Source of the DNA: Oligoflexales bacterium
Lineage (GTDB): Bacteria > Myxococcota_A > UBA9042 > DTJE01
DNA length: 42,119 nt
Direction of reading: 5' to 3'
Assembly: GCA_012840965.1 (NCBI GenBank)
Contig: DUVQ01000102.1
Coordinates: 1 to 42,119 of the forward strand
This document shows positions 1,117 to 28,632 of this stretch, in pieces (the first letter of the stretch is position 1; each line of letters begins with the position of its first letter). The notes beneath the pieces are model-generated. The model did not search any database, was not told the DNA's origin, and was given only the letters and a program-made list of their open reading frames with translations. A program made the position numbers and the translations under genes.

Positions 1117-1161
1117 GTTCGAACCCTCCCGCAACGAATCATGTCACAAACACGCCAAACA

Positions 1162-1289
1162 TGCAACGATTAGACATTCGCGTCATTTGCGTGTCAGTTT
1201 TGAAACGATTATTCGATTTATTCGTGCCATAAATGAAGCGTATTTGACGCGCAAAATTATTCGCGTCATGCGACTTTTGCAACGATTAG
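1162..1289. promoter_or_regulatory. Cluster of operator-like repeats upstream of HATPase/wHTH gene
   Basis: The 12-mer TGCAACGATTAG occurs at 1162-1173 and 1278-1289, with related forms AAACGATTA near 1204 and CAACGAATC near 1131. Between them are TGACGCG half-sites: an inverted pair at 1245-1251 and 1262-1268 (10-base spacer), and a direct pair on the minus strand at about 1173-1196 (TGACACGCAAA, then TGACGCGAATG). The spacing and symmetry look like binding sites for a dimeric DNA-binding protein controlling the gene at 1116. No clear -35/-10 pair could be assigned. Confidence 0.5.
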
Positions 1290-1313
1290 CCAGAGTGACA
1301 TTTGCTGGGTTGA

Positions 1314-2093: not shown

Positions 2094-2107
2094 CAACGGC
2101 CTCCAGA

Positions 2108-2974: not shown

Positions 2975-3000
2975 ATTTAAAACTCCCCTCACGGCCCACA

Positions 3001-6000
3001 CTATTTAGAATCAGACCATGGTTTCACATATATTGAAAAGCGCCTGACAATCGAACGGTCCTTACCCTCAACCGCAAGCACCGATATGTCGTTTTGCCCT
3101 TCAATCAAAGGAACGGTGGTATCGAGATCGATTACAGCCTCAGTTGTAGCCCCAAACCTCGTCCAGAAGTGCACCTTGTCCATCCCTCGATAAACCAAAA
3201 CCTTGCGCCTAGCCTCGCCATCATGGCCAAAAAACCCAGCCTTACCTGAAATCTTTAGCATTGGCCTTTCGCCTGTGGCACCATAGATGGGCTCGAAGGA
3301 AACATCCAATTCTGGCTGTACATGTGATGGTTGCACAATTGTTGGAAGGGTCGAAAGTCTGGTTTCACCCCCCACAAATTGCCCGTCTCCCTTAGCAACA
3401 AAACCAAAGCGTTTCGGACCAATCTTGACTGCGACGAAATCGCCAAGGTCTTTAATGGCCTTTAACACAAAGCCTGAGGGCAGATTAAACAAAGTAAAGG
3501 CACTGGTATCAGCTGCGGCTAAAACCTTGGCCCCATCTGTTGTTATTGACCAGTGCTGTGAATCCAGGATCTGGCCAGGGATGGCTGTCTGGTAAAGATC
3601 GAACTTGACCTTTTCCGACATAAATTCAGTGTATTTAAGGTCCAGCACCAACACTTCTAGTTCAGCAGGCACTACGCCTAAAACCTTGCGGACGTCTATC
3701 TTAAAGGTCGCTTGTGCGTGACCACCAGGTGGGATTGGTTGGTCAAATTTCACCCTACCCGTCCTGATGTTTATTGGAGAATCATTGCTATTTCGAATAG
3801 TTACCAGCACCTTGCTGGCTGGACCAGGGCCCAGATTAAACACATCCACCAAAACATCAGCAGCCTCACCATCGTTTAGCAGGCCGTCCCCGCCAGAATC
3901 TTGAATCTGAACTGTAAAGGCAAAGCGAGGACGCTGCACACCGGCCACTTCCACAGCAACTGGAGATGGACTTGGCAGCTCAGTCTCTTGTTGAAACAGC
4001 CTGAACCTAAGCTGATCCAACCTGTTATAGGAATCAAGCGGAATCTTTAGGTCGATTTCCCTTTCAACAGGAATTGAAGGCTCAAGCAGCCCAAACACGA
4101 ACTCACGACCATCTAAAAGGCCATTTTCCGATTCCGTCATACAGTGAACACGATGCAAGGGCTGAGCACCCAAATTAACCGCTGTGGCCTTCAACTTCAC
4201 CTCGGTGCCGCCTACCAGCGGGCCAGCAGGCTCAACCGACCAATCAACCCTGACATTCGTATCTGAAGGGGCCGGACCCGCACTCCAATTCACCCCACGC
4301 TCGGCAAACAATTGCGAAATCCTAGCGTCTTGGACTTCATTCCACTTGGCAATGGCCTCGTTAGCTTGCTCAAGTTTGGAGCGTCCATAAGGTCCCTTGA
4401 TAGCCCCCACAATGGCCTTTCCAAGGGTTATGACCTCGTCTTGCTTGAATTTATCTGTGTCTTCAAGAGGCGGCAGCTCATCGTCGTCATCATCGTACTC
4501 AATGGCGTCACTATCGAGCCAGAAAAAGCGGTGCGCCGGGGGCACATCTGACACCTCGCCAAAAGGCTCCAGCCGACGCTTTGGGTCACGTGGGCGTCTG
4601 TCATCAAGCAACCCCATAGTAATAAAGCGCTTTCCAACAGTCACCGGCATCGTTTCCACATCTGGAACAACCCCAACCCCCTGAATCGAAAACTTGCCTG
4701 GGATAAGATACTGGGCAACAGTCAGTTTCAGGGCCGCATCCTCAATGTCATACAAAACCTGAACCGTACCCTTGCCAAAGGATGTGTTACCTATCACCAC
4801 AGCGCGATCATTGTTTTTCAAGGCACCTGCAACGATTTCAGCCGCGCTGGCGCTTCCACCATCAATCAAAACTACCACCGGCGTCTTCTTTTGAGCGGCA
4901 CTACCATCGGCCTCATATTCCTGGTGCATCTTCTTGCCGTCACCCTCAGTAATGACCAGCGTTCCCTGTGGAATAAAAAGGTTTGAAAGTTCAACAGCTT
5001 GGGCCAATAACCCGCCCGAATTTTGCCGCAGGTCCAGCACAAAACCACGATTGGCACCTTCGCGACCCAGCAGCTTTATGGCGTTTTCAACCTGTTCGAC
5101 GGTGTCTTCCTGGAAATTGCGAACCTTGATATAGCCAATACCGTCTTTCAGGTTTTGATGGGTGACGCTCTTAACCCTGATTTCCTCGCGCACCAAAGTC
5201 ATTTGCCTTGGCTCGTCCCATCCTTTGCGCTCGATGGTTATGGTTACTTCTGTTCCAGGTTCCCCGCGCATTTTGGACACCGCCGTTGTCAAAGACATGT
5301 TCATGGCGGATTCGTCCCCAATTTCAACTATCTGGTCTCCGCTACGAAGCCCTGCCTTTTCGGCTGGAGTCTCCTCCATGACAGACACAATGGTCACAAC
5401 GCCATTGCGGCTTGAAATCACAATACCGAGGCCACCAAACCTGCCTTCAGTATCCATCATCATGTCGGCGTACGCCCTTGGCGACAAAAATGACGAATGT
5501 TCATCGAGAGGCAGCAGCATTCCGTTGATGGCGGCATACTCGACTTCATCAGTTTTCACGTCGTTCGACAGATTATCGGCAACAAACTCAAATATGTCTT
5601 TCAGGCGCCAATTAACCTTAAACAAGGTATCAACGTCTTCGACCGCAAAACTCTTGGTTTTTACGCCCATTCTGACTTCAATAAGCTTCACGTCTTCAGG
5701 CTCGTCTGCGTCCGGAATAATCATCATGTCAGGGATCAACCCTTCTGCACCACGCAGGGCCCCAAGCAGCATTGGCAACGGTTTCAGGCGATCTGGCACC
5801 ACATAGTTTGCCTGAATCAAACCGGTGCTTCTGGTCAGGTACTTTAATTTCTTCAAAGTTTGCGGCGAGTTATCGTTGGCCAGAACTTCATGACCGCTTA
5901 TTACTTTGTACAGGGCCCCGCTGGAGTCGAATTTAAACTCCAAAATCCACAGGGCGGCCGCCAAAACCAGCGCTATAAAAAATAAATTACGTAAAACCCT

Positions 6001-6012
6001 CATTATCCTCAT
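3001..6012 (-). CDS. S41 (C-terminal processing) protease with PDZ domain and long C-terminal extension
   Basis: 1003 residues, about twice the length of ordinary CtpA-type proteases. Residues 5-24 are a signal peptide or membrane anchor, so the enzyme is exported. A PDZ domain spans about 190-275 (RFGGLGIVIS, AGLRSGDQIVEIG). The S41 catalytic domain follows, with DLRQNSGG near 327-334, the nucleophile Ser389 in GGSASAAEI and the general base Lys414 in FGKGTVQ, the usual 25 residues apart. After an Asp-rich stretch near 510, residues about 570-1003 form Ig-like, CARDB-like beta domains ('GDGLLNDGEAADVLVDVFN' type), suggesting substrate or partner binding in the periplasm (inference). GGGAG lies 8 bases upstream of the start. 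Its last base is shared with an alternative ricT start. Confidence 0.93.
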   Translation of the reverse strand: MRIMRVLRNLFFIALVLAAALWILEFKFDSSGALYKVISGHEVLANDNSPQTLKKLKYLTRSTGLIQANYVVPDRLKPLPMLLGALRGAEGLIPDMMIIPDADEPEDVKLIEVRMGVKTKSFAVEDVDTLFKVNWRLKDIFEFVADNLSNDVKTDEVEYAAINGMLLPLDEHSSFLSPRAYADMMMDTEGRFGGLGIVISSRNGVVTIVSVMEETPAEKAGLRSGDQIVEIGDESAMNMSLTTAVSKMRGEPGTEVTITIERKGWDEPRQMTLVREEIRVKSVTHQNLKDGIGYIKVRNFQEDTVEQVENAIKLLGREGANRGFVLDLRQNSGGLLAQAVELSNLFIPQGTLVITEGDGKKMHQEYEADGSAAQKKTPVVVLIDGGSASAAEIVAGALKNNDRAVVIGNTSFGKGTVQVLYDIEDAALKLTVAQYLIPGKFSIQGVGVVPDVETMPVTVGKRFITMGLLDDRRPRDPKRRLEPFGEVSDVPPAHRFFWLDSDAIEYDDDDDELPPLEDTDKFKQDEVITLGKAIVGAIKGPYGRSKLEQANEAIAKWNEVQDARISQLFAERGVNWSAGPAPSDTNVRVDWSVEPAGPLVGGTEVKLKATAVNLGAQPLHRVHCMTESENGLLDGREFVFGLLEPSIPVEREIDLKIPLDSYNRLDQLRFRLFQQETELPSPSPVAVEVAGVQRPRFAFTVQIQDSGGDGLLNDGEAADVLVDVFNLGPGPASKVLVTIRNSNDSPINIRTGRVKFDQPIPPGGHAQATFKIDVRKVLGVVPAELEVLVLDLKYTEFMSEKVKFDLYQTAIPGQILDSQHWSITTDGAKVLAAADTSAFTLFNLPSGFVLKAIKDLGDFVAVKIGPKRFGFVAKGDGQFVGGETRLSTLPTIVQPSHVQPELDVSFEPIYGATGERPMLKISGKAGFFGHDGEARRKVLVYRGMDKVHFWTRFGATTEAVIDLDTTVPLIEGQNDISVLAVEGKDRSIVRRFSIYVKPWSDSK

Positions 6013-6132
6013 TTCGATGCTCCCAAGCTTCGAAAAGCTTTACGCATCCTACCTGAACCTTTGGCCAAAATGAATGTTCCAAGCGAAAATTGCTTTGGGT
6101 CCGGGCTAGTCACCCAAACTACACTCACATGC

Positions 6133-6897
6133 CTAACGGTTCATGTTGTGGATCAATTTCAAACCCATCATGGTCAGGTCTGGCTCAATTCGATCAACGA
6201 CCGCACACTCTAAGCACACCAGCGAGGCCATGCCTCCAGTCGCGATAACATGGACTGGGTCCTTCATTTCCAGTTTCATTCTGGTGACAATCCCCTCGAC
6301 CATTGATAGATAGCCATAAAAAGCACCTGATTGGATGCTGTGGATGGTATTTCGACCAATGACCGACTGGGGCCGCGCAACGTCCACCCTGGGCAGTTTC
6401 GCGGTCCGCAAAAACAAGGCATCCAAGCTGACCGTGACACCTGCCACGATTACGCCGCCAAGATATTCGCCGCCTGCAGTTATAGCGTCAAAGGTGGTCG
6501 CGGTCCCAAAATCCACGACTATCAGGTCGGTTTTGTACAATCCACGCGCCGCCACTGCGTTTACAATTCTGTCTGCGCCCACATCCCTTGGAGTTTCATA
6601 GGAAATCGAGATTCCGGTTTTGACCCCTGGGCCCACAATTAGAGGTTGTTGTCCAAAAAAGCGTTTGGAAAGTTCAACAAAAACGGCCTGTAACCTTGGG
6701 ACAACGCTTGCCAAACACACGTGATGTACCTGCTTTGGGGCCAAGTTGGCCATCCTGAGCAATCCGTCCAGGGTGGCCGCATATTCGTCGGCAGTTGTCT
6801 CGGCTCTGGAGGCAATCCTGAAGCTGCTGACCAGCCTATCCCCGTCAAATATTCCAATCACAATGTTGGTGTTGCCAATATCAATGGCTGCCAGCAT
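6133..6897 (-). CDS. coaX: Type III pantothenate kinase
   Basis: 254 residues, a normal CoaX length. It phosphorylates pantothenate, the first step of coenzyme A synthesis, in the cytoplasm. The ASKHA-fold phosphate motif AAIDIGNTN is at 3-11, the second motif VVDFGTATTFD is mid-protein, and GGVIVAGV and ATGG follow. GADRIVNAVAA, typical of CoaX, is present. The start has GAGGTG a few bases ahead. It follows nadC by 23 bases; birA, often found between nadC and coaX in other bacteria, is absent here. Confidence 0.96.
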   Translation of the reverse strand: MLAAIDIGNTNIVIGIFDGDRLVSSFRIASRAETTADEYAATLDGLLRMANLAPKQVHHVCLASVVPRLQAVFVELSKRFFGQQPLIVGPGVKTGISISYETPRDVGADRIVNAVAARGLYKTDLIVVDFGTATTFDAITAGGEYLGGVIVAGVTVSLDALFLRTAKLPRVDVARPQSVIGRNTIHSIQSGAFYGYLSMVEGIVTRMKLEMKDPVHVIATGGMASLVCLECAVVDRIEPDLTMMGLKLIHNMNR

Positions 6898-6920
6898 CTG
6901 TCACCTCGTTCGCACTAGAA

Positions 6921-7823
6921 TCAATGGTCTTGAACATGGCCCTCTTGTGAGGCTGAACTTTTGGAGGCCGGGACCTTGATATACATCGAAAAATCGAGCC
7001 ATGGAGCTTGATGAGTCAAGGCGCCGGAAGACACGAAATCGACGTCCATCTGCGCTATCTCGTGGGCCCTATCAATGGTCACGTTGCCAGACAGTTCAAG
7101 CTTGATGTTTTGGGCGTTTGCCGCCCTAGCACGTTCGCGAACCGCGACCACTTGTTCATGGGTCATGTGGTCCAGCAGCAACATATCTGCCCCGGCGTCG
7201 ATTGCCTGACAAGCCTCTTCGATGGTCCTGACCTCGACCTCAATGCCCGTCAAAGCTGGAGCTTTGGCACGCGCCTCCAAGATTGCCGAGCGCAAGTCAC
7301 CACCTCTGATAGCTATGTGGTTGTTTTTTATCAACACCCCACCATCCAAGCCCATTCGATGATTTCTGGCGCCACCAATCCTGACGGCGTACTTTTCCAA
7401 GACCCTTAAGCCTGGCGTGGTTTTCCTGGTATCCAGCAGGACTACTCTGCCTTTAGCCATGGCGTCGACAAAGCGGCGGGTTGCGGTAGCCACACCTGAC
7501 AGGCGCATCACAAAGTTCAGCAAGGTGCGCTCGGCGGTCAAAAGCGAGGCCGCCCGACCGCGGATCTTCATCACCTGCATGCCTGGTTCAACCACCGTCC
7601 CATCTGGGTGCAACACCTCCCAAGTTATGGTTGGGTCGACCTCTTCAAGCACCACCTGCGCCACGGGCAGGCCAGCCAAAACTCCCTGGGCCTTGGCCTC
7701 TATGTGCGCATCAACGACCACATCAGGCGGCACCACGGTCATGGTGGTGATGTCCCCAGTTCCGATGTCCTCATCCAAGGCAAATCTGACAATACGCCTA
7801 ACTTGTGGATTGTTAGTCAACAT
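6921..7823 (-). CDS. nadC: Nicotinate-nucleotide pyrophosphorylase (carboxylating)
   Basis: 300 residues. It converts quinolinate and PRPP to nicotinate mononucleotide in NAD synthesis. Characteristic motifs are DEDIGTGDITT near the N-terminus, AERTLLNFVMRLSGVAT, LDTRKTTPGLRVLEKYAVRIGG, the NHRMGLDGGVLIKNNHI quinolinate-binding stretch, EVEVRT and the C-terminal ELSGNV...DFVSSGALTH. The last 15 residues after the catalytic barrel are a Ser-rich tail. Located 39 bases downstream of the aminotransferase and 23 upstream of coaX. No nadA or nadB is in the window. Confidence 0.97.
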   Translation of the reverse strand: MLTNNPQVRRIVRFALDEDIGTGDITTMTVVPPDVVVDAHIEAKAQGVLAGLPVAQVVLEEVDPTITWEVLHPDGTVVEPGMQVMKIRGRAASLLTAERTLLNFVMRLSGVATATRRFVDAMAKGRVVLLDTRKTTPGLRVLEKYAVRIGGARNHRMGLDGGVLIKNNHIAIRGGDLRSAILEARAKAPALTGIEVEVRTIEEACQAIDAGADMLLLDHMTHEQVVAVRERARAANAQNIKLELSGNVTIDRAHEIAQMDVDFVSSGALTHQAPWLDFSMYIKVPASKSSASQEGHVQDH

Positions 7824-7862
7824 GTTGGGATTTTATCCTGAAATAGCTGTTCCTAGCAGCGC

Positions 7863-9062
7863 CTAGCGCTGATTCCACTGCTTGATTGCCTCAACCAGCA
7901 GGTCCATGGCAATCTGCAGGTCTTCTTCCTTCAAAACGTAGGCAATTCTGACTTCTTCTGCGCCCGCGCCTTCAGTGGCATAAAAGCCGTTACCTGGGGC
8001 AACCATTACCGTTTTGCCGTCTTTTTGGAAGTCGGTCAAAAGCCACTGGGCAAAGGCGTCCGCGTCGCCAACCGGCAGGCGAGGCTGCACATAAAACGCG
8101 CCTTCTGGGACTGCACAGGTTGCGCCAGGAATCTTTGCCAGGCCTTCCATAACGCGGTCCCGACGCCGGCGATATTCATCAATTGTCGGAGGAACGTACT
8201 TGTCAATCACAGAATAGCCAACGGTGGCGGCGTACTGTTCCAGGGTTGGTGGGCAAAGGCGGGCCTGTCCAAAACGCAGGATCGCGGCCAGCAGTTCTTC
8301 GTTCTTGGTAACCAAGAAGCCAATTCTGGCGCCACAAGCGGAAAATCGCTTGCTGATGCTGTCAATCAGGATAGCTCGGTCTGAGCAACCCAGTTCAGCC
8401 GCAACATCAAGGACGCAGGTCGCCACATGCCCGTCATAGCAAAATTCGCGATAAGCCTCATCGCTGATGGCATACAGACCATGTTTCTTGGCCAGTTCGA
8501 CCAAAGCGGTGACTTCCTGCCTTGTAAACACGGCACCAGTTGGATTACCAGGAGACGACCACAAGATGGCCTTTGTCTTGGGGGTAATCTTGGCCTCGAT
8601 CTGGGCTACTGGTGGCAGGTGATAGCCGTCTTCAACCTTCGTTTGAACCGCACGCAGGTGCACGCCCAACATGCAGGCAAAGCCACTGTAGTTGGTGTAA
8701 AAGGGCTCAAAAACGATGATTTCATCGCCTGGATCGCAGATAGCCGCCATTGCAAACAAAATGGCCTCGCTACCGCCCTGAGTCACCAGCACATGATTAG
8801 CAGACACATCAACGCCAATGCCCCTTAGGTACTTTGCCATGGCCTCTCTGGTCTCATTCAAACCAGCAGAAGGCCCATATGACAGAACCGGGTCAGAAAA
8901 GGCCTTAACCGCCTCCAGCATTTCCGGCGGAGTTGTAATATCAGGCTGGCCAATATTAAGGTGAAACACCTTGATTCCCTTTGCCTTAGCGGCATCCGCC
9001 AAAGGAGTCAGCCGTCGAATAGGGGACGCAGGCATCGCATTTCCACGATCAGACAATTTCAC
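7863..9062 (-). CDS. PLP-dependent class I aminotransferase (aspartate aminotransferase-like)
   Basis: A GTG at 9062 with GGAGGT 5 bases upstream gives 399 residues, the normal length for fold-type I aminotransferases. A longer reading from 9170 adds 36 residues with no family resemblance. Visible features are the N-terminal NIGQPDI, the PLP-phosphate region GGSEAI, SSPGNPTGA at 169-177, SDEAYREF around 200-207 (the Asp that pairs with the pyridine nitrogen), and the Schiff-base Lys238 in SISKRFSACGARIG, which includes the phosphate-binding Arg. The exact amino donor cannot be told from sequence. It heads the operon-like block running into nadC and coaX; an aspartate/oxaloacetate role would fit NAD synthesis but is only suggestive. 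Confidence 0.9.
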   Translation of the reverse strand: MKLSDRGNAMPASPIRRLTPLADAAKAKGIKVFHLNIGQPDITTPPEMLEAVKAFSDPVLSYGPSAGLNETREAMAKYLRGIGVDVSANHVLVTQGGSEAILFAMAAICDPGDEIIVFEPFYTNYSGFACMLGVHLRAVQTKVEDGYHLPPVAQIEAKITPKTKAILWSSPGNPTGAVFTRQEVTALVELAKKHGLYAISDEAYREFCYDGHVATCVLDVAAELGCSDRAILIDSISKRFSACGARIGFLVTKNEELLAAILRFGQARLCPPTLEQYAATVGYSVIDKYVPPTIDEYRRRRDRVMEGLAKIPGATCAVPEGAFYVQPRLPVGDADAFAQWLLTDFQKDGKTVMVAPGNGFYATEGAGAEEVRIAYVLKEEDLQIAMDLLVEAIKQWNQR

Positions 9063-9311
9063 AGCACACCTCCAGTCAACAACGGTTGGACCTAAGTTTT
9101 GCCAAGAGCCAAAACAACGACGCATTACTATACCCCAGATGAGTGGTAAAAGTCTTGGGATATTGTTCAAAACAGCAGCAAAAGCGGCTTACTAGAAGGT
9201 GCGATGATAGGCAATACACCAACTCTTAACACGACAACGGTGTAAGTCTTTAAAACACAAGTCACGTTCGCCATTGAAATCGAGGTACTGGAGTGGATTC
9301 AGCCGCCAAAT

Positions 9312-10049
9312 TTACCAAAGGTATGAGATGCCAAACTGGCCGCCTGCATAGAGACCAACACCCGACCATAACTCCGAGGCAAAGACAAGGGGGCCTACTT
9401 CCAAATTGAAGTGCATGTTAAAGTTTTTAACCAAGTTGAACTCAGCGCCGATAATGTACAGCATTGGAATTTCAGCTATTCTGGTGGTTAACCATACACG
9501 AATCGGCATCCTGAGTCCCGTCACAATCGCGACGCGTGGATTATCCCAGCGATGGCTGTACCTTAATTCAGGGCCTCCAATCTGGAATGCCGCCAGAAAC
9601 CCCGCCTTTTCGCAGAAAATGTACAGATTATCGTCGTCATCTATGAATCCTAAGCAGTGATAGCTAAGGTAGCCAACATAGTTCATAGCAAAGCCTATGT
9701 CAGCACCAAGCGAGATTGCGTTCCCGCCGCTCTTCCAAAGCAGCCCCTTCAACTGGAAGCCAAGCGTGTTTCCAATGGTCGGAGCTCCTACCAGAGCATC
9801 GTAAAAACCGTAGTCAATGGTAATAAACGGCGTGAGCTCAAACTTGGCCCCAAGCGGGATGTGAATACCAAAATCGGTTGATGGCCAACCCAGCCGGACT
9901 TCCAATGCATAAGTCCCCTTCGGTAAGACTTCCGCACCCTGAGTCAACCACCCATAAGCACCTTTTTCTTTAGCAGAAGCTATTGATGCGGTGGTCGTAA
10001 TTGAAACGGCTACCAATGCTGCAAGTAACGTCCTGAAAACCGACTTCAT
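9312..10049 (-). CDS. Exported protein, probable outer-membrane beta-barrel
   Basis: The ATG at 10049 follows AAGGAGGG by 4 bases and starts a 245-residue protein. Residues 1-27 form a typical signal peptide ending in ASIASA. The mature part alternates hydrophobic and polar residues with many aromatics and glycines (GTYALEVRLGW, ITIDYGFYDALVG, AVSLGADIGF-like strands). It ends in YLW, an aromatic last residue typical of outer-membrane barrels. No specific family is recognised. A longer reading from 10172 lacks a ribosome site and is rejected. An unusual run of ten Gs lies about 193 bases upstream. Confidence 0.75.
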   Translation of the reverse strand: MKSVFRTLLAALVAVSITTTASIASAKEKGAYGWLTQGAEVLPKGTYALEVRLGWPSTDFGIHIPLGAKFELTPFITIDYGFYDALVGAPTIGNTLGFQLKGLLWKSGGNAISLGADIGFAMNYVGYLSYHCLGFIDDDDNLYIFCEKAGFLAAFQIGGPELRYSHRWDNPRVAIVTGLRMPIRVWLTTRIAEIPMLYIIGAEFNLVKNFNMHFNLEVGPLVFASELWSGVGLYAGGQFGISYLW

Positions 10050-10760
10050 CTTACCCTCCTTGTTAATTGAGATTGTGGCTATGTGTTCACGAATTTCAGG
10101 GGTTAAAACATTCTTTTGGCCAGGCACCAGTTTCTTGTGGTCGGTCCGAATCTGATGAGCATTGACACACAAGTTCTGCGAAGACGACCTCGACTCAGTA
10201 CCAAATATACGCTGTTGTTTTAAGCACTTAAGCCGGAAATTGGGGGGGGGGCATTTAGATTCACTAGCAGCGCACGACTGCTGTTTTCCGGATGTAGAGA
10301 CGAATCGTTCACAAAAAGAGGAGCGTACATCAAAAACCTCTTGGTCGCCGGATTATAGAGCAAAACTTTCTGTTAGAGCAAGCACCATGTTTTACAGATT
10401 CTCCCAAAAAATCACCACCTAGTTTTAGCTAGCTGGTAGAACAAAGATTTCTGCACATACAAATGATGAACAAATCAACGAAGGATTAAGGCACAAAAAA
10501 CTTCCACCTACATGGTGATCATGATTCTCCAATATTCGTAATGAATTAAAGGCGAAAATTTATTTGACTGGAAATCGTGGCTACGTCGTCACCCAAACCT
10601 TTAATAACGGCGGCATCTTTTCTTTCCTCCCAGCCGAGTTTTTGTATGGAAAACGACTCCTCAACACAAAAAGAAACCCCTTCCAGGCATCTCCAGCGTC
10701 GATGCTGGGGTTGTCCAAGGGACCAACCGAATCATTAGGTGTTTCGTTGTTATCTACATA
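10050..10760. other. Intergenic region of about 700 bases with no convincing gene
   Basis: AT-rich sequence between two minus-strand genes. It holds the ten-G tract at 10242-10251 and a small hairpin CCAGC...GCTGG near 10696-10712 within a T-poor context. Short open frames on the plus strand (for example 86 codons at 10162-10422, read through the G tract) lack ribosome sites and family resemblance. The promoter of the exported-protein gene should lie at its left end but no consensus was found. Confidence 0.5.
10242..10251. repeat. Homopolymer of ten Gs
   Basis: An uninterrupted G10 run on the plus strand (C10 on the strand of the downstream gene), 193 bases upstream of the start of the exported barrel-like protein. 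Homopolymers of this length are prone to slipped-strand length change and are found at phase-variable surface genes in other bacteria. That role is inference here. Confidence 0.8.
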
Positions 10761-10792
10761 AGGTTACGTTAACTTCACAAAACGTAATGAAC
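10761..10792 (-). terminator. Weak terminator-like hairpin after the AgmX/PglI lipoprotein gene
   Basis: Immediately after the lipoprotein stop codon, on the minus strand, TTACGTT and AACGTAA form a 7-bp stem around a 10-base loop. It is extended by AGG/CCT with a bulge and followed by a short T/A stretch. The U-tract is poor, so termination may be inefficient or factor-assisted. Confidence 0.35.
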
Positions 10793-11563
10793 CTAGCCTG
10801 GGGAAAATATGAACGGCCACTGCACAACGCAGATACCGCTTTCAGGCTTCTGGAATCTCATGGCGCGAATAACCCTCAGCACGCACTCCTCAACCTTTGC
10901 GTTACCAAGGGTAGAAGATTTGATTGATGCTTCTGAAACTCGACCTTCACCGTCGATGGTCCATCGTATCATCGTTTTACCGGCCAACGACTCATGACTC
11001 TGGAGCTGAGCCTCATAACAGGCGCGAATAGCACCAGCACGACGCATAACGTTGGTGGTGATGTGTTCTTTTTCGCAGACCCCAGTAAAACCACCAGAGC
11101 CAAGCTTCATCTGGCCAACTTTCTTGGTACCTTTCTTTCCTAGGTCTGTACGCTCTCCCATTCCACCGCCGGTATCAACTCGGCCAAGGCCGTGGATTCT
11201 GCCATAACCGCCAGTTTGCCAACCACCAGGGCCATATCCTTTAAAGCCCATATCACCGGCATCGTCGCCGACTTGCTCCTCGAAGGCGCTACTGCGACCA
11301 AGCTGGTTAGAAAGCACGTTTGCAAGTCCAATCTTCTTGGGGTCAATCTTGTTGCTCAAAGTTGGATCGTTGTCGGGATCACCGAACTTACCTTCTTCGC
11401 CTTCCGCACGATCACCATTCGGCACCTTGCTCTCCAAGGTTGGATCCTTGTCGGATTCTGCGGATTTACCTTCTTCGCCTTTTGCACGCTTACTAGGCTG
11501 GTCGTAGCAGCCGACCAACATCAGAAAAGTAAATAGAGCTGTTATTGCTAGCAGATTTTTCAT
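10793..11563 (-). CDS. Lipoprotein with AgmX/PglI C-terminal domain
   Basis: 256 residues with a signal peptide and lipobox LVGC; Cys19 is the predicted lipidated residue. After a charged linker with a duplicated EGEEGK...DPTL motif comes a Gly-rich stretch, then a domain from about 160 that matches the AgmX/PglI C-terminal family: AGAIRACYEAQL, an IDGEGRVSEASIKSSTLGN strand pair, VEECVLRVIRAMRFQKPE and PFIF. The fold is TonB-C-like, and proteins with it belong to myxobacterial gliding and related envelope machines. The two Cys of the domain (ACYE and EECV) are conserved in the family. GGAGG precedes the start by 5 bases. A hairpin follows its stop. A second AgmX-domain protein is encoded at 21480-22373. 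Confidence 0.85.
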   Translation of the reverse strand: MKNLLAITALFTFLMLVGCYDQPSKRAKGEEGKSAESDKDPTLESKVPNGDRAEGEEGKFGDPDNDPTLSNKIDPKKIGLANVLSNQLGRSSAFEEQVGDDAGDMGFKGYGPGGWQTGGYGRIHGLGRVDTGGGMGERTDLGKKGTKKVGQMKLGSGGFTGVCEKEHITTNVMRRAGAIRACYEAQLQSHESLAGKTMIRWTIDGEGRVSEASIKSSTLGNAKVEECVLRVIRAMRFQKPESGICVVQWPFIFSPG

Positions 11564-14010: not shown

Positions 14011-14751
14011 TTAACCAAGCGATTCGCCGTAGCGCAGGCGCCGACGTAGCTCTTTGACTTCGCGCTCGGTGGCCTCTAGTTTGGCGGCGGTCTGCAGTTC
14101 ACCTGGGCTGGTTTCAATGACTTGCTTGATGGCGCCTTCACCCAAAATCAAACGTTTATGAGCCCTTAACGCGATTAATGGGTCGTGGGTGGCCAAAAAA
14201 ACTAGCCTGTTTTCTTTGACCAAAAACTCAAGCGCTGCATGGCGATCAATTCCAGCGTTCTCGATCTCGTCGATTAAAAGCACTGGGGCGTTGGCCACCA
14301 GAACCAAATCCGCGACCATCAAGGCCCTGGCTTGGCCTCCGGATAGTGTGGCTAGAGGCTGCGAGCCCGACATCGGCTCACCTGCAAGGTTGTTGGCGGC
14401 CTTTATAACCGCACTTTTGTCAGTATTGGCGCTGCGGGCGGCCACGTGCATTTCGATGAATTGATCGACTGAGAGGTCAAGGAAGAACTGCATCGTTTGA
14501 CTGATTCGACCGACCGCGAAACCAGATTCAACCAGCTTTTCATCAACGCCAGTAAGGGAAACCTTGCGGCGAGTGGGGGAATCCCCTTGTGACAAGCGCT
14601 CCATGTCCGACAGGAGCCGCGTTTTTCCAGAGCCTGTGGGGCCACAGATGGCTACCACCTGGCCGCCATGAAATGACAATGCCCCGTATGACTCGGCCGC
14701 GCCGCTTTTGTCGGTGCCAGCCTCAATCTTCATAGTGGTCATTTTGGGCAT
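14011..14751 (-). CDS. Stand-alone ABC-type ATPase of the GTPase/radical SAM cluster
   Basis: 246 residues, a single nucleotide-binding domain without membrane segments. Walker A GPTGSGKT at 37-44, Q-loop SQTMQ near 84-88, signature LSGGQ at 136-140, Walker B VLLIDE at 157-162 and the H-loop His189 in ATHD are all intact, so it should hydrolyse ATP. The last 40 residues are a charged helix likely to form a coiled coil. No permease or binding-protein gene is adjacent, which argues against a conventional transporter. It is the last gene of a tightly spaced four-gene cluster, 15 bases after the GTPase gene. AGGAGGG precedes the start. A chaperone or assembly ATPase role is inference. Confidence 0.85.
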   Translation of the reverse strand: MPKMTTMKIEAGTDKSGAAESYGALSFHGGQVVAICGPTGSGKTRLLSDMERLSQGDSPTRRKVSLTGVDEKLVESGFAVGRISQTMQFFLDLSVDQFIEMHVAARSANTDKSAVIKAANNLAGEPMSGSQPLATLSGGQARALMVADLVLVANAPVLLIDEIENAGIDRHAALEFLVKENRLVFLATHDPLIALRAHKRLILGEGAIKQVIETSPGELQTAAKLEATEREVKELRRRLRYGESLG

Positions 14752-14766
14752 TATCCCTCCTGCAAT

Positions 14767-15417
14767 TTATCTTTCGTGCCCTGAGCCAATGCCCTGGCAA
14801 AAATGGCAGTAGCCCATGGGTAAAGTCACCCTTAAAGGCTCGATATCCATGAATCTGATGTCCCTGGAATCAAGCACCATAGCGGCCAAGTCGCCAACGC
14901 CTTCACCGGTTAATCCGTCGACGTTGAAAACTCGTCCTTGGGGTTGGATGGCCCTTAGTTTGGCGGTAAAGATGTGTCGCTCGGTTGGGCTTATCAGCGA
15001 GGTTTTGGTCAAAACAATCAGGTCGGAGGCCTCGACAATGGGGCGCATGCTTTCAGGGGTGCCAAGGTGGGCAAGCCCGCTGACAACGCAGATGGCAAGG
15101 GCTCGCTTTAAAAATGGTGAACATCTGTGGCAAAGGCCGGCTGTTTCAATGCACAGCAGGTCAAGGCCCAGGTCCTCGGCCCAGTCCCAAGCTCGACCAA
15201 GAGACACCATGGCCTCGTGATCTGGGCATACATCCTTGGCGCTGTGACCTTTGGCTGCAAAACCGGCTTGGATGAAAACCAGTTCATCACCAGCATCAAG
15301 CGCGTCAATCTTGAACACGCCAGCTTTTAGCCCAGCCTTTTGAGCGTGACGCAAAAGGTGCAGCAAAACCGCAGTCTTTCCAACCCCTTGCCCACCTGCA
15401 ACGATCACAACTTTCAT
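14767..15417 (-). CDS. G3E/HypB-like P-loop GTPase A with CxxC motifs
   Basis: 216 residues. Walker A GGQGVGKT is at 8-15, the G3E-type Glu motif ETAG at 91-94, and a guanine motif position at 137-140 that reads TKTS instead of the usual [NT]KxD, so base specificity may be weakened. Four cysteine-bearing sites match GTPase B: CPDHxxM at 64-70, ETAGLCxRC (Cys96, Cys99), GLTGEG, and the C-terminal YCxxC (Cys204, Cys207). G3E GTPases such as HypB, UreG and CobW insert metals or cofactors into target enzymes. The ATG at 15417 is chosen; an in-frame TTG at 15561 overlapping the radical SAM stop would add a 48-residue Arg/Gly/Asp leader translated from the hexamer repeat. Confidence 0.85.
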   Translation of the reverse strand: MKVVIVAGGQGVGKTAVLLHLLRHAQKAGLKAGVFKIDALDAGDELVFIQAGFAAKGHSAKDVCPDHEAMVSLGRAWDWAEDLGLDLLCIETAGLCHRCSPFLKRALAICVVSGLAHLGTPESMRPIVEASDLIVLTKTSLISPTERHIFTAKLRAIQPQGRVFNVDGLTGEGVGDLAAMVLDSRDIRFMDIEPLRVTLPMGYCHFCQGIGSGHER

Positions 15418-15440
15418 AACAAGCCCCTGATCCAGACTCC

Positions 15441-15556
15441 ACCCCCGCCTCCTGCCCCTGTCCCTGCCCCTGCCCCTGCCCCCGCCCCTGTCCCTGCCCC
15501 TGTCCCCGTCCCTGTCCCCGCCCCCTGTCCCCGGCCCCTGCCCCTGTCCCCCTGCC
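15441..15556. repeat. G-rich hexamer repeat, locus 3 (longest)
   Basis: About 115 bases of tandem CCCCTG/TCCCTG/CCCCGT-type hexamers on the plus strand, G-rich on the minus (coding) strand. It begins directly after the radical SAM stop codon and ends 24 bases before the GTPase A ATG. It contains many runs of three to five Gs with 2-3 base spacers, so both DNA and the intercistronic mRNA fit the canonical G-quadruplex pattern. Confidence 0.9.
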
Positions 15557-15557
15557 C

Positions 15558-16868
15558 TCAAGCGCCCCTTACCGGCACTAGTTCCTCATACCCATACAGA
15601 TTCGCATAACCTCTGGAAACACCGTTACATTCCCTGCGCAGCTTACACCTACGGCACTGGGGCCCCTTCGTGCGCAGCAAGTCGACCGACGTTTTGTCAA
15701 AAACATCACCTTCTGCGCTGCTGGTAAGCCTGAATATGGACATGTAGCGGTCGTATGAATATCGCTCCAAGCCTGGCAGCAAACAAAGCGGAAAGCCACG
15801 GAAAGTCAGAGGTAACCCCCTACCATGAGCTATCTCCAAGGCCTTTAAAACCGGCTCCATTACATCCGTCAGTTTTGGCAACAGCTCTTCCCGATTTAAC
15901 CAAGCATTTTCTTCAGGCATCACAAAGTCGATGTTTGGGACAAACAAGTTTTCCATGGCGTCGTTGCGATCAGCCCACCAATTTGCAAGATCTGGTAATT
16001 GCGAAGCATTTTTCTTGGTTATAACTGCGATGCTACCCAAAAGAAGCTGTGGATGCCTGGCAACTGCATCAAACGCCAAAGAAACTTTGTCAAACACTGG
16101 ACTTTGCCACAACTCGTGCGCGATTTCTTTATCAGGCGTATCAAACGATATGCCCACAGCAGTTATGCCCGCTTCAACAAGACGGTCTAAAACCCCTGGA
16201 ATTGACAGCGTTACCCCGTTTGTAACCAAGATGACCTGGCGATAACCCAAAGTCCTGGCAACTGTAATAATCTTCAGCACTTCAGGATGCAGGGTTGGCT
16301 CGCCACCAGTCAGGGCGACCTTTTGCAGATTTCGACGACGGCCCAGCATCAGGTCTGAAACAATCTCGGCAGTTGTCCTGGTTGTACGATTTTCATGACC
16401 CAAAAGGCAGTATGTACAATTCAGGTTGCACCTGGTTCCAAGGCGCAAATCAATATATGGCATCAAGGTGTCAGCGTATTTGGTGATCTCTGGAATTCGC
16501 CTTGCTGGGTCTCGATCCTCGGATGAGCTAATCACAGTCAGGCCAGGCGTACCAAAGCCCTCAACCACGCGCCGCAGCAGATTGGCTTCCATCTCGAAAA
16601 CATCCGGGTCTTCAGCAGCCAAAGCGGCCTTTGCAAGCAGCTCTTCAACTGGAATCAAACCGTACCAAGGCCCCTGCGCGGTTTCACGCCGCCTGACAAT
16701 TCCAAGCCCAACCAGCTGTGGCAACAGCACGGCCACCCGCTCCTGAGGCATCCTGGCAAGATAACCAACCCTAGACTCAGGCTCTTCGCGAAATCCTAAA
16801 AAACCAGCCACTAAAGACCATTGTTCTGGATTAAGGCCTAAAGCATCTGGAATGCATTGAAATTCCAA
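15558..16868 (-). CDS. Radical SAM protein with N-terminal winged-helix-like region and C-terminal auxiliary Cys motif
   Basis: 436 residues. The first 110 residues look like a winged-helix segment (WSLVAGFLGF...RMPQERVAVLLPQLVGLGIVRRR). The radical SAM core starts near 136 with YIDLRLGTRCNLNCTYC; Cys147, Cys151 and Cys154 form the CX3CX2C cluster site, and GGEP at 188-191 binds SAM. Near the C-terminus Cys405, Cys408 and Cys414 (CRRCKLRREC) resemble a SPASM/twitch-type auxiliary cluster site. TTG start at 16868 supported by AGGGGG 6 bases upstream. It sits between two related GTPases and upstream of an ABC ATPase. The substrate is unknown; a cofactor or protein modification role is inferred from the neighbours. 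Confidence 0.9.
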   Translation of the reverse strand: MEFQCIPDALGLNPEQWSLVAGFLGFREEPESRVGYLARMPQERVAVLLPQLVGLGIVRRRETAQGPWYGLIPVEELLAKAALAAEDPDVFEMEANLLRRVVEGFGTPGLTVISSSEDRDPARRIPEITKYADTLMPYIDLRLGTRCNLNCTYCLLGHENRTTRTTAEIVSDLMLGRRRNLQKVALTGGEPTLHPEVLKIITVARTLGYRQVILVTNGVTLSIPGVLDRLVEAGITAVGISFDTPDKEIAHELWQSPVFDKVSLAFDAVARHPQLLLGSIAVITKKNASQLPDLANWWADRNDAMENLFVPNIDFVMPEENAWLNREELLPKLTDVMEPVLKALEIAHGRGLPLTFRGFPLCLLPGLERYSYDRYMSIFRLTSSAEGDVFDKTSVDLLRTKGPQCRRCKLRRECNGVSRGYANLYGYEELVPVRGA

Positions 16869-16886
16869 AGTTTACCCCCTGAAAAC

Positions 16887-17531
16887 TCAGTAAATGCCAA
16901 CCTCGGCTTTACCAAGACAGTAGGAACAGTACAACTGAGGCAGAGGCGTTTTCAAGGCCTGCTCACCATCTACCATACCAGCGATCACACCCTGAACGGA
17001 CTTGACCAAATCCCAGGCACCCTCCCCTGTCAACCCATTGAACCACACCAGTGTTGCCCCTGGATTTTTGCCTCGCACAGCGCCAGCGAAAATCTCACGC
17101 TCTGGCTGGGAAACCAAATCCCCCTTGGACAAAACCACAATATCAGCATCCGTCAAAAGCGGCCCCAGCTTGTATGGGGTCCTTGAACCAGCCGTGCAGT
17201 CGATCACACAAATCGCGACTGAATTGCACAGATATGGCGCACACCTGCCACACAGCCCAGCTGTTTCAATCACCAGCGTATCTAAATCACAAGCCCATTC
17301 ATCTATTTCGGGCAGGCTCTCCATCAACAGATGGTCAGGACAATAGCGGCCAGCCAGCAACAGCTTCACCACAAGGCCCTGATCCAAAAACATCTTTTCA
17401 TCGACCGACGATACACAATCCAGCTTGGCGACCCCAAGGCGGCCAAATCCATCGCTTTGGGCCAACGCCAGAACGACTTTAGATTTTCCAGAAGATGGTG
17501 TGCCGCCAACTACAATTCTCACGAACAGCAT
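16887..17531 (-). CDS. G3E/HypB-like P-loop GTPase B with CxxC motifs
   Basis: 214 residues, paralogous to GTPase A. Walker A GGTPSSGKS is at 9-17, ETAG at 89-92, and the guanine motif SKGD at 135-138 is intact, unlike A. Shared cysteine features are CPDHLLM at 64-70, ETAGLCGRC (Cys94, Cys97), GLTGEG at 167-172 and the C-terminal YCSYC (Cys202, Cys205). These could bind a metal between domains or between subunits, and the two paralogues may form a heterodimer (inference). First gene of the cluster, 18 bases before the radical SAM gene. The ribosome site before the ATG is weak. Confidence 0.85.
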   Translation of the reverse strand: MLFVRIVVGGTPSSGKSKVVLALAQSDGFGRLGVAKLDCVSSVDEKMFLDQGLVVKLLLAGRYCPDHLLMESLPEIDEWACDLDTLVIETAGLCGRCAPYLCNSVAICVIDCTAGSRTPYKLGPLLTDADIVVLSKGDLVSQPEREIFAGAVRGKNPGATLVWFNGLTGEGAWDLVKSVQGVIAGMVDGEQALKTPLPQLYCSYCLGKAEVGIY

Positions 17532-20076: not shown

Positions 20077-20182
20077 GGGGCAGGGTCCAGGGGCAGGGAC
20101 GGGGGCGGGGACAGGGACAGGGGCAGGGTCCAGGGGCGGGGGCAGGGTCCAGGGGCAGGGACGGAGACAGGAGGCAGGGACA
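20077..20182. repeat. G-rich hexamer repeat, locus 4
   Basis: About 105 bases of GGGGCA, GGGTCC, GGGACG/GGGACA units on the plus strand, in the divergent region between ispF and the release-factor-like gene. Multiple G3-G5 runs with 2-3 base loops give strong G-quadruplex potential, close to where both promoters should be. Confidence 0.9.
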
Positions 20183-20300
20183 GTTCATTTTATGTGTTCG
20201 TCCTTGGTGACGGGACCGGAAACGTTGATTTTGGCTTGATTGCAACTTTAAATTCTGTATCGTTACCTTGGTTTGATTTTGGGCTTTCCGAGGCTTTTAA

Positions 20301-22373: not shown

Positions 22374-22432
22374 CCCTGCACCTGTCCCTGCACCTGTCCC
22401 TGCGCCTACACCTGTCCCTGCACCTGCACCTG
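22374..22432. repeat. Hexamer repeat, locus 5
   Basis: About ten units of CCCTGC/ACCTGT/ACCTGC on the plus strand (G-rich on the minus strand), starting at the base right after a TGA stop and lying between two convergent genes. Runs of two or three Gs make G-quadruplex formation less certain than at loci 3, 4 and 8. Confidence 0.85.
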
Positions 22433-25713: not shown

Positions 25714-28632
25714 TTGGAGCACTGTGGTCAATGTAATAACAGCTGTATAGGACGAATTCCTTATGCCGAAATAATTGTATGTGAAGTTCCTGACGACCCT
25801 GATGAGGCACCAACCTGCCAGGTAGATAAATGCCAAGATGGGTGGGTTTTATTTAACAATTCCTGCGTTCCACCTCTGTCCAATCTTTGTTTGCCATGTA
25901 ATACGGACAGCGACTGCGGCTACGGCAATGACAAGTGTGTTGAACTTGATGGAGAAGGTTATTGTGGCCGCGACTGTGCGCCTGGGGCACCCCAAGGAAC
26001 TGACTGCCCCGATGGATTTACATGTACTGCCATGACTGGAGGCGGTGCTCAATGTATCCCCACATCTGGAACCTGCCAGTGCACCTTGTCCAACAATGGT
26101 GTAAAGCGCCCATGTGAAAAGAGCAACGAATTTGGCACTTGTATCGGGGCCGAAATCTGTGACGGGCTCGTCGGATGGGGGCCTTGTTCTGCCGCCACCC
26201 CAGAAAGGGAAGTTTGTGATGGCATCGACAATGACTGCAACGGCATCATTGATGACAACCCAGTGCTACCTAACGAGCCATGTGCAAAATCCTGGACCGA
26301 CCCGGTGACTTCAATCGAGTACACCTGCACGGCAAACTGGCACTGTGTATCTGTTGGTGGTGGGGTAAATGATTGGGTGTGCGATGCCCCAAGCCCAGAA
26401 CCTGAGGTTTGTAACGGTCTTGATGACAACTGTGATGGTCAGGTGGACGAAGATTTCAAAGTCAACGGTAAGTACGGCACTTTGGAACATTGCGGAGCTT
26501 GTGGAGTTTCATGTATCGGCTTGGTTGAAGGCGCAACCGAAATGCGCTGCAATACCGACCTGCCAAAGCCTGCGTGTGAAGTTGTCTCGTGTGAGCCCGG
26601 CTTCTGGAAGGCTTCAAGCCTGTCATGCCAACCGTTCCCAGACACGCTGTGCCAGCGGTGCTCTTCTGACCGGGCCTGTCAGGTGCCGGGTGATAAGTGT
26701 GAGCCAGCAGACTCCGCGGGCAGGACTTATTGCCTGTGGAGCTGTGACCCTGAAACAACCATCCACCCTGAATTAACCCCTGGAAACTATTGCCCAGATG
26801 GCTATACATGTGTTGAGCACATGGCCGCACTGATTCCAGGATTTTATTGTGTGCCAGATTCCGGCAGCTGTGACTGTCTAGCACCTGATGCAGGGGCTGA
26901 AAGGCTTTGTTACAACCAAAACGCCTACGGAAGATGCCAAGGCGTTGAAACATGCGATCCTGAGCATGGATGGATTGGGTGTGACGCCTTGGTGCCTGCT
27001 CAGGAAACCTGCAACGACATTGATGACAACTGCAACGGTTATGTCGATGAATTGTGGCCGACTAAAGGCGCCGTGTGCAGTGAAGGAATCGGGGCATGCC
27101 GTGCCGAAGGACAACTGGAGTGTAACGCCGACGGGACCGACTTGGAGTGTAGCGCCACTCCCAGTGCTGGTGATCCTGAAATTTGCGACGGTCTCGATAA
27201 TGACTGTGATGGTTTGGTCGACGAATTGTGGCCACTTAAGGGCAGTGCTTGTGCTATTGGTCAGGGACTTTGCTACGCAACTGGAATTTGGGTCTGTTCT
27301 GATGACAAGTCTGACATTGTGTGTAACGCCCCAGTCCTGACTGGTTCGCCAGAGCTGTGCGATGGGTTGGACAACAACTGCAATGGTCAAATTGACGAAA
27401 TTTTCCCGAACCTTGGCAAGTTCTGTTCGGTAGGAACCGGAGAATGCTTGAGCCAGGGCGTCTACGAGTGTAAGGCCGATGGTAGTGGCACTGAGTGTTC
27501 GGCCGCTATCATCGAGCCAGACGAAGAAATATGTGACGGAGCGGACAACGACTGTGATGGTCAAATCGATGAAGACTGGCCGACACTTGGTCGTCTGTGC
27601 TCCGTTGGAATTGGGGAATGTATGGCTGTGGGTGTACAAGTCTGCTCTAATGATGGGTACAGCACGGTTTGTGATGCAATCCCTGGCGAGGAAGAAGATG
27701 AAATCTGCGACGGACTGGATAACGACTGTAATGGCCATGTAGATGATCCTTGGCCAAACAAAGGCAAGGCATGCAGCATTGGGCTTGGCGAGTGCCATTC
27801 CACTGGCGTATGGGAGTGCAAGGCCGACGGCAGTGACGTGGCTTGTAATGCCCCGACTATTCCACCAGGCACCGAGATTTGTGACGGAAAGGACAACAAC
27901 TGCAATGGCGAGGTTGACGAAAACTTCCCAACCTTAGGGCAGATCTGCTTTGTAGGTAAGGGCGAATGCATGAGAATCGGCACCAACATCTGTTCTAGCA
28001 ATGGATTGGGCGTTGAGTGCAGCGCGACAGCTGGCCCAGTGGCAGATGAGATTTGTGATGGTTTGGACAATAACTGCGATGGTTTTACTGACGAACTGTG
28101 GCCAACCAAGGGTCAGCCATGCACTGACGGTGCCGGGCCATGTCTAGTAACCGGTGTGTTGCAATGTAATGCCGCCAAGAATGGCCTTGAATGCAGCGTA
28201 GTTGCTGGCAATGGAACTGATGAAGTCTGTGACGGTATCGATAACGACTGTAATGGTGTTATTGACGATGGTTTCCCGGACTTAGGTAAACCCTGTAGCA
28301 AGGGCAAGGGCGAGTGTTTTAGAACTGGCGTCTACATCTGCAAGACCGACGGCACCGGCACCGAGTGTGATGCAGAGGAAATTGAGCCCAAGCAGGAAAT
28401 GTGCGACGGAAAGGACAACAACTGTGATGGCGTTATTGACGATGGTTTCCCGGACCTAGGCAAACCTTGTAGTAAGGGCAAGGCGAGTGTTTTGCAACTG
28501 GCGTCTACGTCTGTAAAGCCGACGGTACCGGCACCGAGTGTAATGCAGAGGACATTACACCTGAGCAGGAAACCTGCGACGGGAAGGACAACAACTGTGA
28601 TGGCGTTATTGACGATGGTTTCCCAGATTTAG
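25714..28632 (+). CDS. Central piece of giant Cys-rich lipoprotein (MopE repeats)
   Basis: The same frame is open from 25567, so the TTG at 25714 is only a formal start. It carries two further Cys-rich modules (NLCLPCNTDSDC..., TLCQRCSSDRAC..., each ending in SGTC or SGSC) and about eleven MopE-type motifs such as EVCDGIDNDCNGIID, each spaced about 55-60 residues with WP/FP and a C-x-G-x-G-x-C stretch between. No signal peptide exists on this piece, so without readthrough of the TGA it would not be exported. The last 50 residues (from about 28479) are out of frame: they read ASVLQLASTS where the sister copies read GECFATGVY. Sequence-level reason: one G missing near 28475-28478. Confidence 0.75.
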   Translation: MEHCGQCNNSCIGRIPYAEIIVCEVPDDPDEAPTCQVDKCQDGWVLFNNSCVPPLSNLCLPCNTDSDCGYGNDKCVELDGEGYCGRDCAPGAPQGTDCPDGFTCTAMTGGGAQCIPTSGTCQCTLSNNGVKRPCEKSNEFGTCIGAEICDGLVGWGPCSAATPEREVCDGIDNDCNGIIDDNPVLPNEPCAKSWTDPVTSIEYTCTANWHCVSVGGGVNDWVCDAPSPEPEVCNGLDDNCDGQVDEDFKVNGKYGTLEHCGACGVSCIGLVEGATEMRCNTDLPKPACEVVSCEPGFWKASSLSCQPFPDTLCQRCSSDRACQVPGDKCEPADSAGRTYCLWSCDPETTIHPELTPGNYCPDGYTCVEHMAALIPGFYCVPDSGSCDCLAPDAGAERLCYNQNAYGRCQGVETCDPEHGWIGCDALVPAQETCNDIDDNCNGYVDELWPTKGAVCSEGIGACRAEGQLECNADGTDLECSATPSAGDPEICDGLDNDCDGLVDELWPLKGSACAIGQGLCYATGIWVCSDDKSDIVCNAPVLTGSPELCDGLDNNCNGQIDEIFPNLGKFCSVGTGECLSQGVYECKADGSGTECSAAIIEPDEEICDGADNDCDGQIDEDWPTLGRLCSVGIGECMAVGVQVCSNDGYSTVCDAIPGEEEDEICDGLDNDCNGHVDDPWPNKGKACSIGLGECHSTGVWECKADGSDVACNAPTIPPGTEICDGKDNNCNGEVDENFPTLGQICFVGKGECMRIGTNICSSNGLGVECSATAGPVADEICDGLDNNCDGFTDELWPTKGQPCTDGAGPCLVTGVLQCNAAKNGLECSVVAGNGTDEVCDGIDNDCNGVIDDGFPDLGKPCSKGKGECFRTGVYICKTDGTGTECDAEEIEPKQEMCDGKDNNCDGVIDDGFPDLGKPCSKGKASVLQLASTSVKPTVPAPSVMQRTLHLSRKPATGRTTTVMALLTMVSQI

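What the first reader, a model, noticed from the sequence alone, without database searches (positions are those of the whole stretch)
14011..17531. Unrecognised four-gene module: two CxxC GTPases, radical SAM enzyme and soluble ABC ATPase
Seen: two paralogous P-loop proteins share CPDHxxM, ETAGLCxRC, GLTGEG and a terminal YCxxC; between them lies a radical SAM enzyme with a winged-helix-like N-terminus and an auxiliary CxxCx5C site; the ABC ATPase has no permease. Known: G3E GTPases (HypB, UreG, CobW) deliver metals; radical SAM enzymes often build cofactors; soluble ABC ATPases can act in assembly. Inference: a metallocentre or cofactor assembly/repair machine with a GTPase heterodimer. GTPase A has TKTS at the guanine site where B has SKGD, so one partner may be degenerate.
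Basis: partly seen in the sequence, partly recalled or inferred. Interest (0 to 1): 0.78.

Follow-up and report, generated by a model that had tools for sequence, protein, structure and literature searches.

The report
GTPase–radical-SAM–ABC cofactor-assembly gene set
Four neighbouring bacterial genes, two metal-site GTPases, a radical SAM enzyme and a soluble ABC ATPase, are inherited as one set and look like an uncharacterised machine for building or inserting a metal cofactor, but the enzyme it serves is not known.

Summary
In detail: at 14011-17531 (minus strand) lie GTPase B, a radical SAM enzyme, GTPase A and a permease-less ABC ATPase. The set is a real unit: in 284 genomes of the phylum the families are confined to the same few genomes, in the same order wherever contigs are long enough, including distant G203.

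The GTPases are a distinct UreG/HypB-like subfamily. The best structural match is nickel-bound UreG; CPDH falls on UreG's nickel-binding Cys-Pro-His. CPDH, AGLCxRC and a C-terminal CxxC are invariant in 14 proteins, other cysteines are not. GTPase A has a degenerate guanine site.

Correction: the conserved core is ABC+GTPase. It also occurs without the radical SAM gene, beside an Fe-S protein (G203, G155) or, in Fusobacterium, a DUF1858/solute-binding-like protein.

Likeliest function: NTPase-driven metallocentre assembly or activation. The client is unknown: [NiFe]- and [FeFe]-hydrogenase and CODH/hybrid-cluster families are each missing from several module-bearing genomes. One copy is divergent from a nitrogenase-like operon, a lead only. 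No library searched names these proteins beyond superfamily. Genomes outside this phylum could hardly be sampled.

The parts
16887..17531 (-). GTPase B: 214 aa UreG/HypB-like P-loop GTPase; CPDH 17331-17342, ETAGLCGRC 17241-17267, SKGD 17118-17129, YCSYC 16917-16931
   Evidence: (PF02492 41.1 bits, above cut-off)
15558..16868 (-). Radical SAM enzyme: winged-helix N-terminus (1-105), CNLNCTYC 16407-16430, auxiliary Cys set C362 (FPLC 15783-15794) plus CxxCx5C 15627-15656
   Evidence: (PF04055 73 bits)
14767..15417 (-). GTPase A: 216 aa paralogue, real start ATG at 15417; CPDH 15217-15228, ETAGLCHRC 15121-15147, degenerate TKTS 14998-15009, YCHFC 14797-14811
14011..14751 (-). Soluble ABC ATPase, 246 aa, all catalytic motifs, no permease nearby
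   Evidence: (PF00005 48.3 bits)
15442..15557 (.). G-rich hexamer tandem repeat lying between the radical SAM stop and the GTPase A start; absent from the orthologous junctions in G176, G031 and G110, where the two genes abut or overlap

Best explanation
The module is an NTPase-driven machine that assembles, inserts or activates a metal-containing cofactor in a client enzyme. The GTPase pair works like UreG/HypB: a metal ion (or a small cluster) is bound between protomers at the CPDH motif, helped by the GLCxRC pair and the C-terminal CxxC, and is released on GTP hydrolysis. GTPase B is the likely catalytic partner and GTPase A a partly degenerate one, so a heterodimer is plausible. The ABC ATPase dimer supplies mechanical opening or closing of the client or scaffold, as PhnK/PhnL do for C-P lyase and as is proposed for A2 in methyl-coenzyme M reductase activation. 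The radical SAM enzyme, with one probable auxiliary cluster, makes or modifies the cofactor or client. Shown: gene linkage, co-occurrence, UreG-like fold, conserved metal-ligand-type residues. Inferred: metal binding, dimerisation, the ABC's mechanical role, the radical SAM reaction. Unknown: metal and client.
For: Same genomes hold all three families; order conserved across two families of the phylum. UreG (5xkt, nickel-bound; E 3.4e-11, TM 0.69/0.73) and HypB are the closest folds and the closest PDB sequences of GTPase B. CPDH aligns with UreG's Cys-Pro-His, shown elsewhere to bind nickel at the dimer interface (PMC3792862). C64, D66, H67, C94, C97, C202, C205 are invariant in 14 of 14 aligned sequences, C39, C81, C102, C108, C112 are not. 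All seven cysteines of the radical SAM protein other than C5 are invariant where the sequence is complete. ABC+GTPase pairing recurs in three settings: with an Fe-S protein (L034, L035), with a solute-binding-like protein (L043) and with the radical SAM gene. Precedents for soluble ABC ATPases acting on metalloenzymes: PMC9947105, PMC12176620.
Against: No metalloenzyme is consistently adjacent. Tested clients fail: [NiFe]-hydrogenase large subunit absent from G000, G176, G065, G110, G234; [FeFe]-hydrogenase domain absent from G065, G110, G234; CODH/hybrid-cluster family absent from five of the six carriers in the family. GTP specificity of GTPase A is doubtful. The radical SAM model is poor outside the N-terminal domain and parts of the barrel.
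Confidence: 0.52

Rival explanations
1. Redox or repair activation machine: the ABC ATPase and GTPases drive reductive activation of a client's metal site (as in methyl-coenzyme M reductase activation), the radical SAM protein or, in the other variant, the PF04060 Fe-S protein being the electron or radical donor, and no metal is delivered.
For: The radical SAM gene and the PF04060 Fe-S protein each accompany the same ABC+GTPase core; A2 is a soluble ABC ATPase in a reductive activation complex (PMC12176620).
Against: A2 is a double-ABC protein and no GTPase is described there; the UreG-like Cys/His site argues for metal handling.
Confidence: 0.2
2. Cofactor assembly specifically for nitrogenase-like reductases, which are multiplied in these genomes.
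For: In G110 the module operon and an NflH-NflA-NflB-radical-SAM operon are transcribed divergently from a gap of roughly 230 bp (L031). All seven four-gene carriers hold PF00148 proteins, including the distant G203 with 10 matches; G155, which has only ABC+GTPase+Fe-S protein, has none.
Against: Six of seven module-free genomes of the same family also hold them, one with 30 matches, so the module is not required for them; only one adjacency; the frequency of PF00148 in the rest of the phylum was not measured.
Confidence: 0.12
3. The radical SAM enzyme modifies the GTPases themselves or a peptide (RiPP-like maturase), the GTPases not being metallochaperones.
For: Winged-helix N-terminus recalls substrate-recognition domains of peptide-modifying radical SAM enzymes; auxiliary CxxCx5C set.
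Against: No conserved small peptide gene noticed in the loci read; strand/helix order resembles MarR-type winged helices rather than the RRE order (own knowledge); the GTPases keep their cysteines in loci without the radical SAM gene.
Confidence: 0.08
4. An incidental neighbourhood: an ABC importer ATPase whose permease is elsewhere, next to unrelated GTPases.
For: ABC domain matches transporter profiles generically.
Against: The ABC subfamily is found only in GTPase-bearing genomes and is next to the GTPase in every uncut locus, including Fusobacterium; no permease of its own in any of them.
Confidence: 0.05

Closest known systems
UreG (urease nickel GTPase)
   Same: Fold, size, Cys-Pro-x-His-type motif at the place of UreG's Cys-Pro-His, P-loop and Glu in Walker B
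   Different: CPDH not CPH; extra invariant GLCxRC and C-terminal CxxC; partners are an ABC ATPase and radical SAM enzyme, not UreD/UreF/UreE
HypB (hydrogenase nickel GTPase)
   Same: Fold and sequence similarity (2hf8); metal cysteines near switch regions
   Different: Far below the HypB equivalog cut-off (31 vs 121 bits); most module carriers have no [NiFe]-hydrogenase domain match; no HypA/C/D/E/F alongside
COG0523/CobW metal GTPases
   Same: PF02492 GTPase domain, ETxG Walker B
   Different: No GCxCC motif, no CobW C-terminal domain
C-P lyase PhnJ with PhnK/PhnL
   Same: Non-transporter ABC ATPase operating with a radical enzyme and a metal site
   Different: Radical SAM protein has no PhnJ match in Pfam; one ABC gene, not two; no GTPase described there
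MCR activation component A2
   Same: Soluble ABC ATPase that acts on a metalloenzyme
   Different: A2 has two ABC domains; here a single one; no GTPases described in that complex
HydEFG [FeFe]-hydrogenase maturation
   Same: Radical SAM enzymes working with a cluster-binding GTPase (own knowledge)
   Different: HydF GTPase is of another family (own knowledge); three module carriers have no [FeFe]-hydrogenase domain

Membership tests
G3E GTPases | Glutamate in Walker B (definition quoted in PMC2770081) | tested here: met
   E89 of ETAG invariant in 14 sequences
G3E GTPases | Intact NKxD motif | tested here: inconclusive
   [ST][KR]xD in GTPase B and single-GTPase loci; lost or altered in GTPase A (TKTS, TKTS, TRCD, TRSE, TKGE)
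G3E GTPases | PF02492 profile above cut-off | tested here: met
   41.1 and 31.5 bits against 20.7
UreG | UreG equivalog score | tested here: not met
   24.7 bits against 204.2
UreG | Cys-Pro-His metal motif at dimer interface | tested here: inconclusive
   CPDH at the same place; interface not modelled
HypB | HypB equivalog score, and a [NiFe]-hydrogenase in the genome | tested here: not met
   31.0 bits against 121.2; PF00374 absent from G000 and four other carriers
COG0523/CobW | GCxCC motif | tested here: not met
   No such motif in the sequences
Radical SAM superfamily | CxxxCxxC cluster and GGE motif, PF04055 | tested here: met
   73 bits; C147, C151, C154 invariant
Radical SAM enzymes with a twitch-type auxiliary cluster | Four further conserved Cys able to hold one auxiliary [4Fe-4S] | tested here: inconclusive
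   C362, C405, C408, C414 conserved, but the C-terminal fold is not predicted (pLDDT about 30)
C-P lyase (PhnJ/PhnK) | PhnJ-type radical enzyme | tested here: not met
   Only PF04055 and a weak Fer4_12 match
ABC transporter | Cognate transmembrane permease in the operon | tested here: not met
   None beside it in the window or in L028, L029, L031, L034, L035; in L043 the neighbouring metal ABC transporter has its own ATPase

The most novel reading that the evidence does not exclude
The module is a dedicated cofactor-assembly and activation apparatus for uncharacterised nitrogenase-like reductases that are multiplied in these bacteria, pairing a UreG-like heterodimeric metal GTPase with an ABC motor and a radical SAM enzyme: a new type of complex-metallocluster maturation system whose ancestral ABC+GTPase core is spread over more than one phylum.
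Probability: 0.1. Interest if true: 0.85.

Novelty: new variant of a known kind. Interest (0 to 1): 0.5.

Why it matters
If right, a UreG-like metal GTPase subfamily, recognisable by CPDH + AGLCxRC + C-terminal CxxC, works with a soluble ABC motor in organisms as far apart as this deltaproteobacterial-type lineage and Fusobacterium, with exchangeable partners. That would give a handle on an unassigned metallocentre, and a well-defined set of genes to delete or express. No curated library searched (Pfam, NCBIfam, PADLOC) names any of the four proteins beyond superfamily.

Tried and rejected
Clients: [NiFe]-hydrogenase, [FeFe]-hydrogenase, CODH/hybrid cluster, rejected as general clients because several carriers lack them. 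Nitrogenase-like proteins, kept only as a lead. The PF04060 Fe-S partner of G203/G155 is absent from G000 and its family and was not found in plasmids or viral contigs. The Fusobacterium solute-binding-like partner is not found in the family (no positive control). Anti-phage defence: PADLOC matches are superfamily-level only (viperin-like radical SAM core 58 bits, generic ATPases). Viral contigs: one ABC-GTPase fragment on what looks like the host side of a provirus contig (L044); radical SAM hits there are generic. The RecA hits at the top are an artefact of multi-copy fusion chains. Promoter and terminator scan no better than shuffles. Literature searches for such a gene set found nothing.
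Full report
Observation. The four ORFs are present on the minus strand in the order GTPase B (16887-17531), radical SAM (15558-16868), GTPase A (14767-15417) and ABC ATPase (14011-14751). One correction: the ORF of GTPase A runs back to 15561 only because a G-rich hexamer repeat (15442-15557) happens to be open; the protein starts at the ATG at 15417, matching its relatives in G176, G031 and G110, where radical SAM and GTPase A genes abut or overlap.

Is it a unit? I searched 284 genomes of the phylum with each family. True members of the GTPase family, recognised by AGLCxRC, are in G000, G176, G031, G065, G110, G234, G203 and G155; the remaining hits score far lower (E 4e-11 or weaker), and one that I read, G249, is HypB in a hyp operon. 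Full-length radical SAM relatives are in G000, G176, G110, G031, G065 and G203 only (E<1e-100), the next being a generic radical SAM protein at 6.5e-39; in G234 the contig ends 23 residues into the radical SAM gene. The ABC subfamily (E<1e-22) is in G000, G176, G031, G065, G110, G155 and G203; in G065 it sits at a contig end, compatible with an assembly break. So no genome in the sample has the ABC or radical SAM family without the GTPase. Hypergeometric values (3e-13, 4e-11) overstate this because six carriers are one family, but G203 and G155 are from other families. Beyond the four genes, neighbours are not conserved outside the genus: the ceramidase-like and nitroreductase genes flank the module in G000 and G176 only.

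An older core. G203 (second locus) and G155 carry ABC + GTPase without the radical SAM gene, followed by a protein with an N-terminal PF04060 Fe-S motif (in G155 a cysteine desulfurase-like gene lies between). An IMG/VR contig has the ABC end and the GTPase beside prophage-like genes. A Fusobacterium vincentii record, filed as a plasmid but apparently the chromosome, has a DUF1858 + SBP_bac_6 protein without an evident signal peptide, then GTPase (42% identical to GTPase B), then ABC. Hence the ABC+GTPase pair is the conserved core, and radical SAM + second GTPase is one elaboration. In a tree the copies of GTPase A from the window's family form a supported clade (97/96) and the GTPase B copies group together more weakly (92/89), consistent with a duplication within the module; GTPase A of G203 is unplaced.

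What the proteins are. GTPase B is modelled with pLDDT 85; its nearest solved folds are nickel-bound UreG and HypB. In the sequence alignment CPDH falls on UreG's Cys-Pro-His, which in UreG holds nickel between two protomers and drives GTP-dependent dimerisation (PMC3792862). Across 14 sequences C64, D66, H67, C94, C97, C202 and C205 never change, while the five other cysteines of GTPase B do. The Walker B residue is Glu, a G3E hallmark (PMC2770081). The guanine motif is [ST][KR]xD in GTPase B but TKTS, TKTS, TRCD, TRSE, TKGE in GTPase A, so GTPase A may be non-specific or regulatory. The radical SAM protein has a winged-helix N-terminal domain (MarR-like matches), a radical SAM core nearest DesII, GDGT synthase, BlsE and MoaA, and four further invariant cysteines (C362, C405, C408, C414) able to hold one auxiliary cluster; the C-terminal part is not reliably modelled. 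The ABC protein has all catalytic motifs and no permease.

Mechanism. UreG-like metal site, soluble ABC ATPase and radical SAM enzyme together point to assembly, insertion or activation of a metallocentre. Soluble ABC ATPases do mechanical work on metalloenzymes in C-P lyase (PMC9947105) and take part in methyl-coenzyme M reductase activation (PMC12176620). That metal is bound, that A and B pair, and that the ABC protein acts on the client are inferences.

Client. G000 has only three PF02492 places: these two GTPases and one weak partial match, so no HypB, UreG or CobW was seen in a 96% complete assembly. [NiFe]-hydrogenase, [FeFe]-hydrogenase and CODH/hybrid-cluster families are each absent from several carriers. 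The remaining lead is nitrogenase-like proteins: G000 has 11 PF00148 matches, G206 has 30, and in G110 an NflH-NflA-NflB-radical-SAM operon is divergent from the module. All seven four-gene carriers have PF00148 proteins, G155 has none, but so do six of seven non-carriers in the family, and the background frequency was not measured. I therefore give it 0.12.

Verdict. A real, conserved, uncurated gene set with a distinct UreG-like GTPase subfamily; the class of function is likely, the client unknown.

Noticed in passing
G000 contigs C119, C43, C120, C84, C169, C62 (L103-L108); G206 and other family members: Multiple nitrogenase-like component-1 genes (PF00148): 11 matches in G000, 30 in G206; one operon in G000 (L103 8956-15444, minus) has NifH-like, two component-1-like and a large radical SAM gene; the three nitrogenase-like proteins reach no NCBIfam cut-off.
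   Followed up: partly
L031 (G110) 1-10871: Nitrogenase-like operon (minus, starting near 5602) and the module operon (plus, preceded by an extra radical SAM gene starting near 5834) are transcribed divergently.
   Followed up: partly
window 15442-15557, 20077-20183, 22375-22432, 39623-39675; also L105, L107, L111: Dispersed G-rich hexamer tandem repeats (GGGGCA/GGGACA type), mostly between genes, some inside ORFs, scattered over this genome.
   Followed up: partly
window 25714-32114: Two adjacent giant ORFs (972 and 1155 aa) with nine and seven stretches of the MopE putative copper-binding motif PF11617.
   Followed up: no
window 37528-41282: Multihaem cytochrome c and cytochrome b561-type genes, possibly an extracellular electron-transfer or respiratory cluster.
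   Followed up: no
L043, NZ_CP084075.1: A 2.1 Mb Fusobacterium vincentii record filed as plasmid pSB055A carries dnaK/dnaJ-type genes and appears to be the chromosome.
   Followed up: no
L034 7643-8362, L035 9168-9863: A PF04060 Fe-S protein of about 235 aa with a strongly conserved, unnamed C-terminal region (GRPLGMSCGCPITHCGV) linked to the ABC+GTPase core.
   Followed up: partly
L032 (G234) 1018-6120: Radical SAM, B12-binding radical SAM and SGNH-hydrolase-like genes run upstream of GTPase B on the same strand.
   Followed up: no
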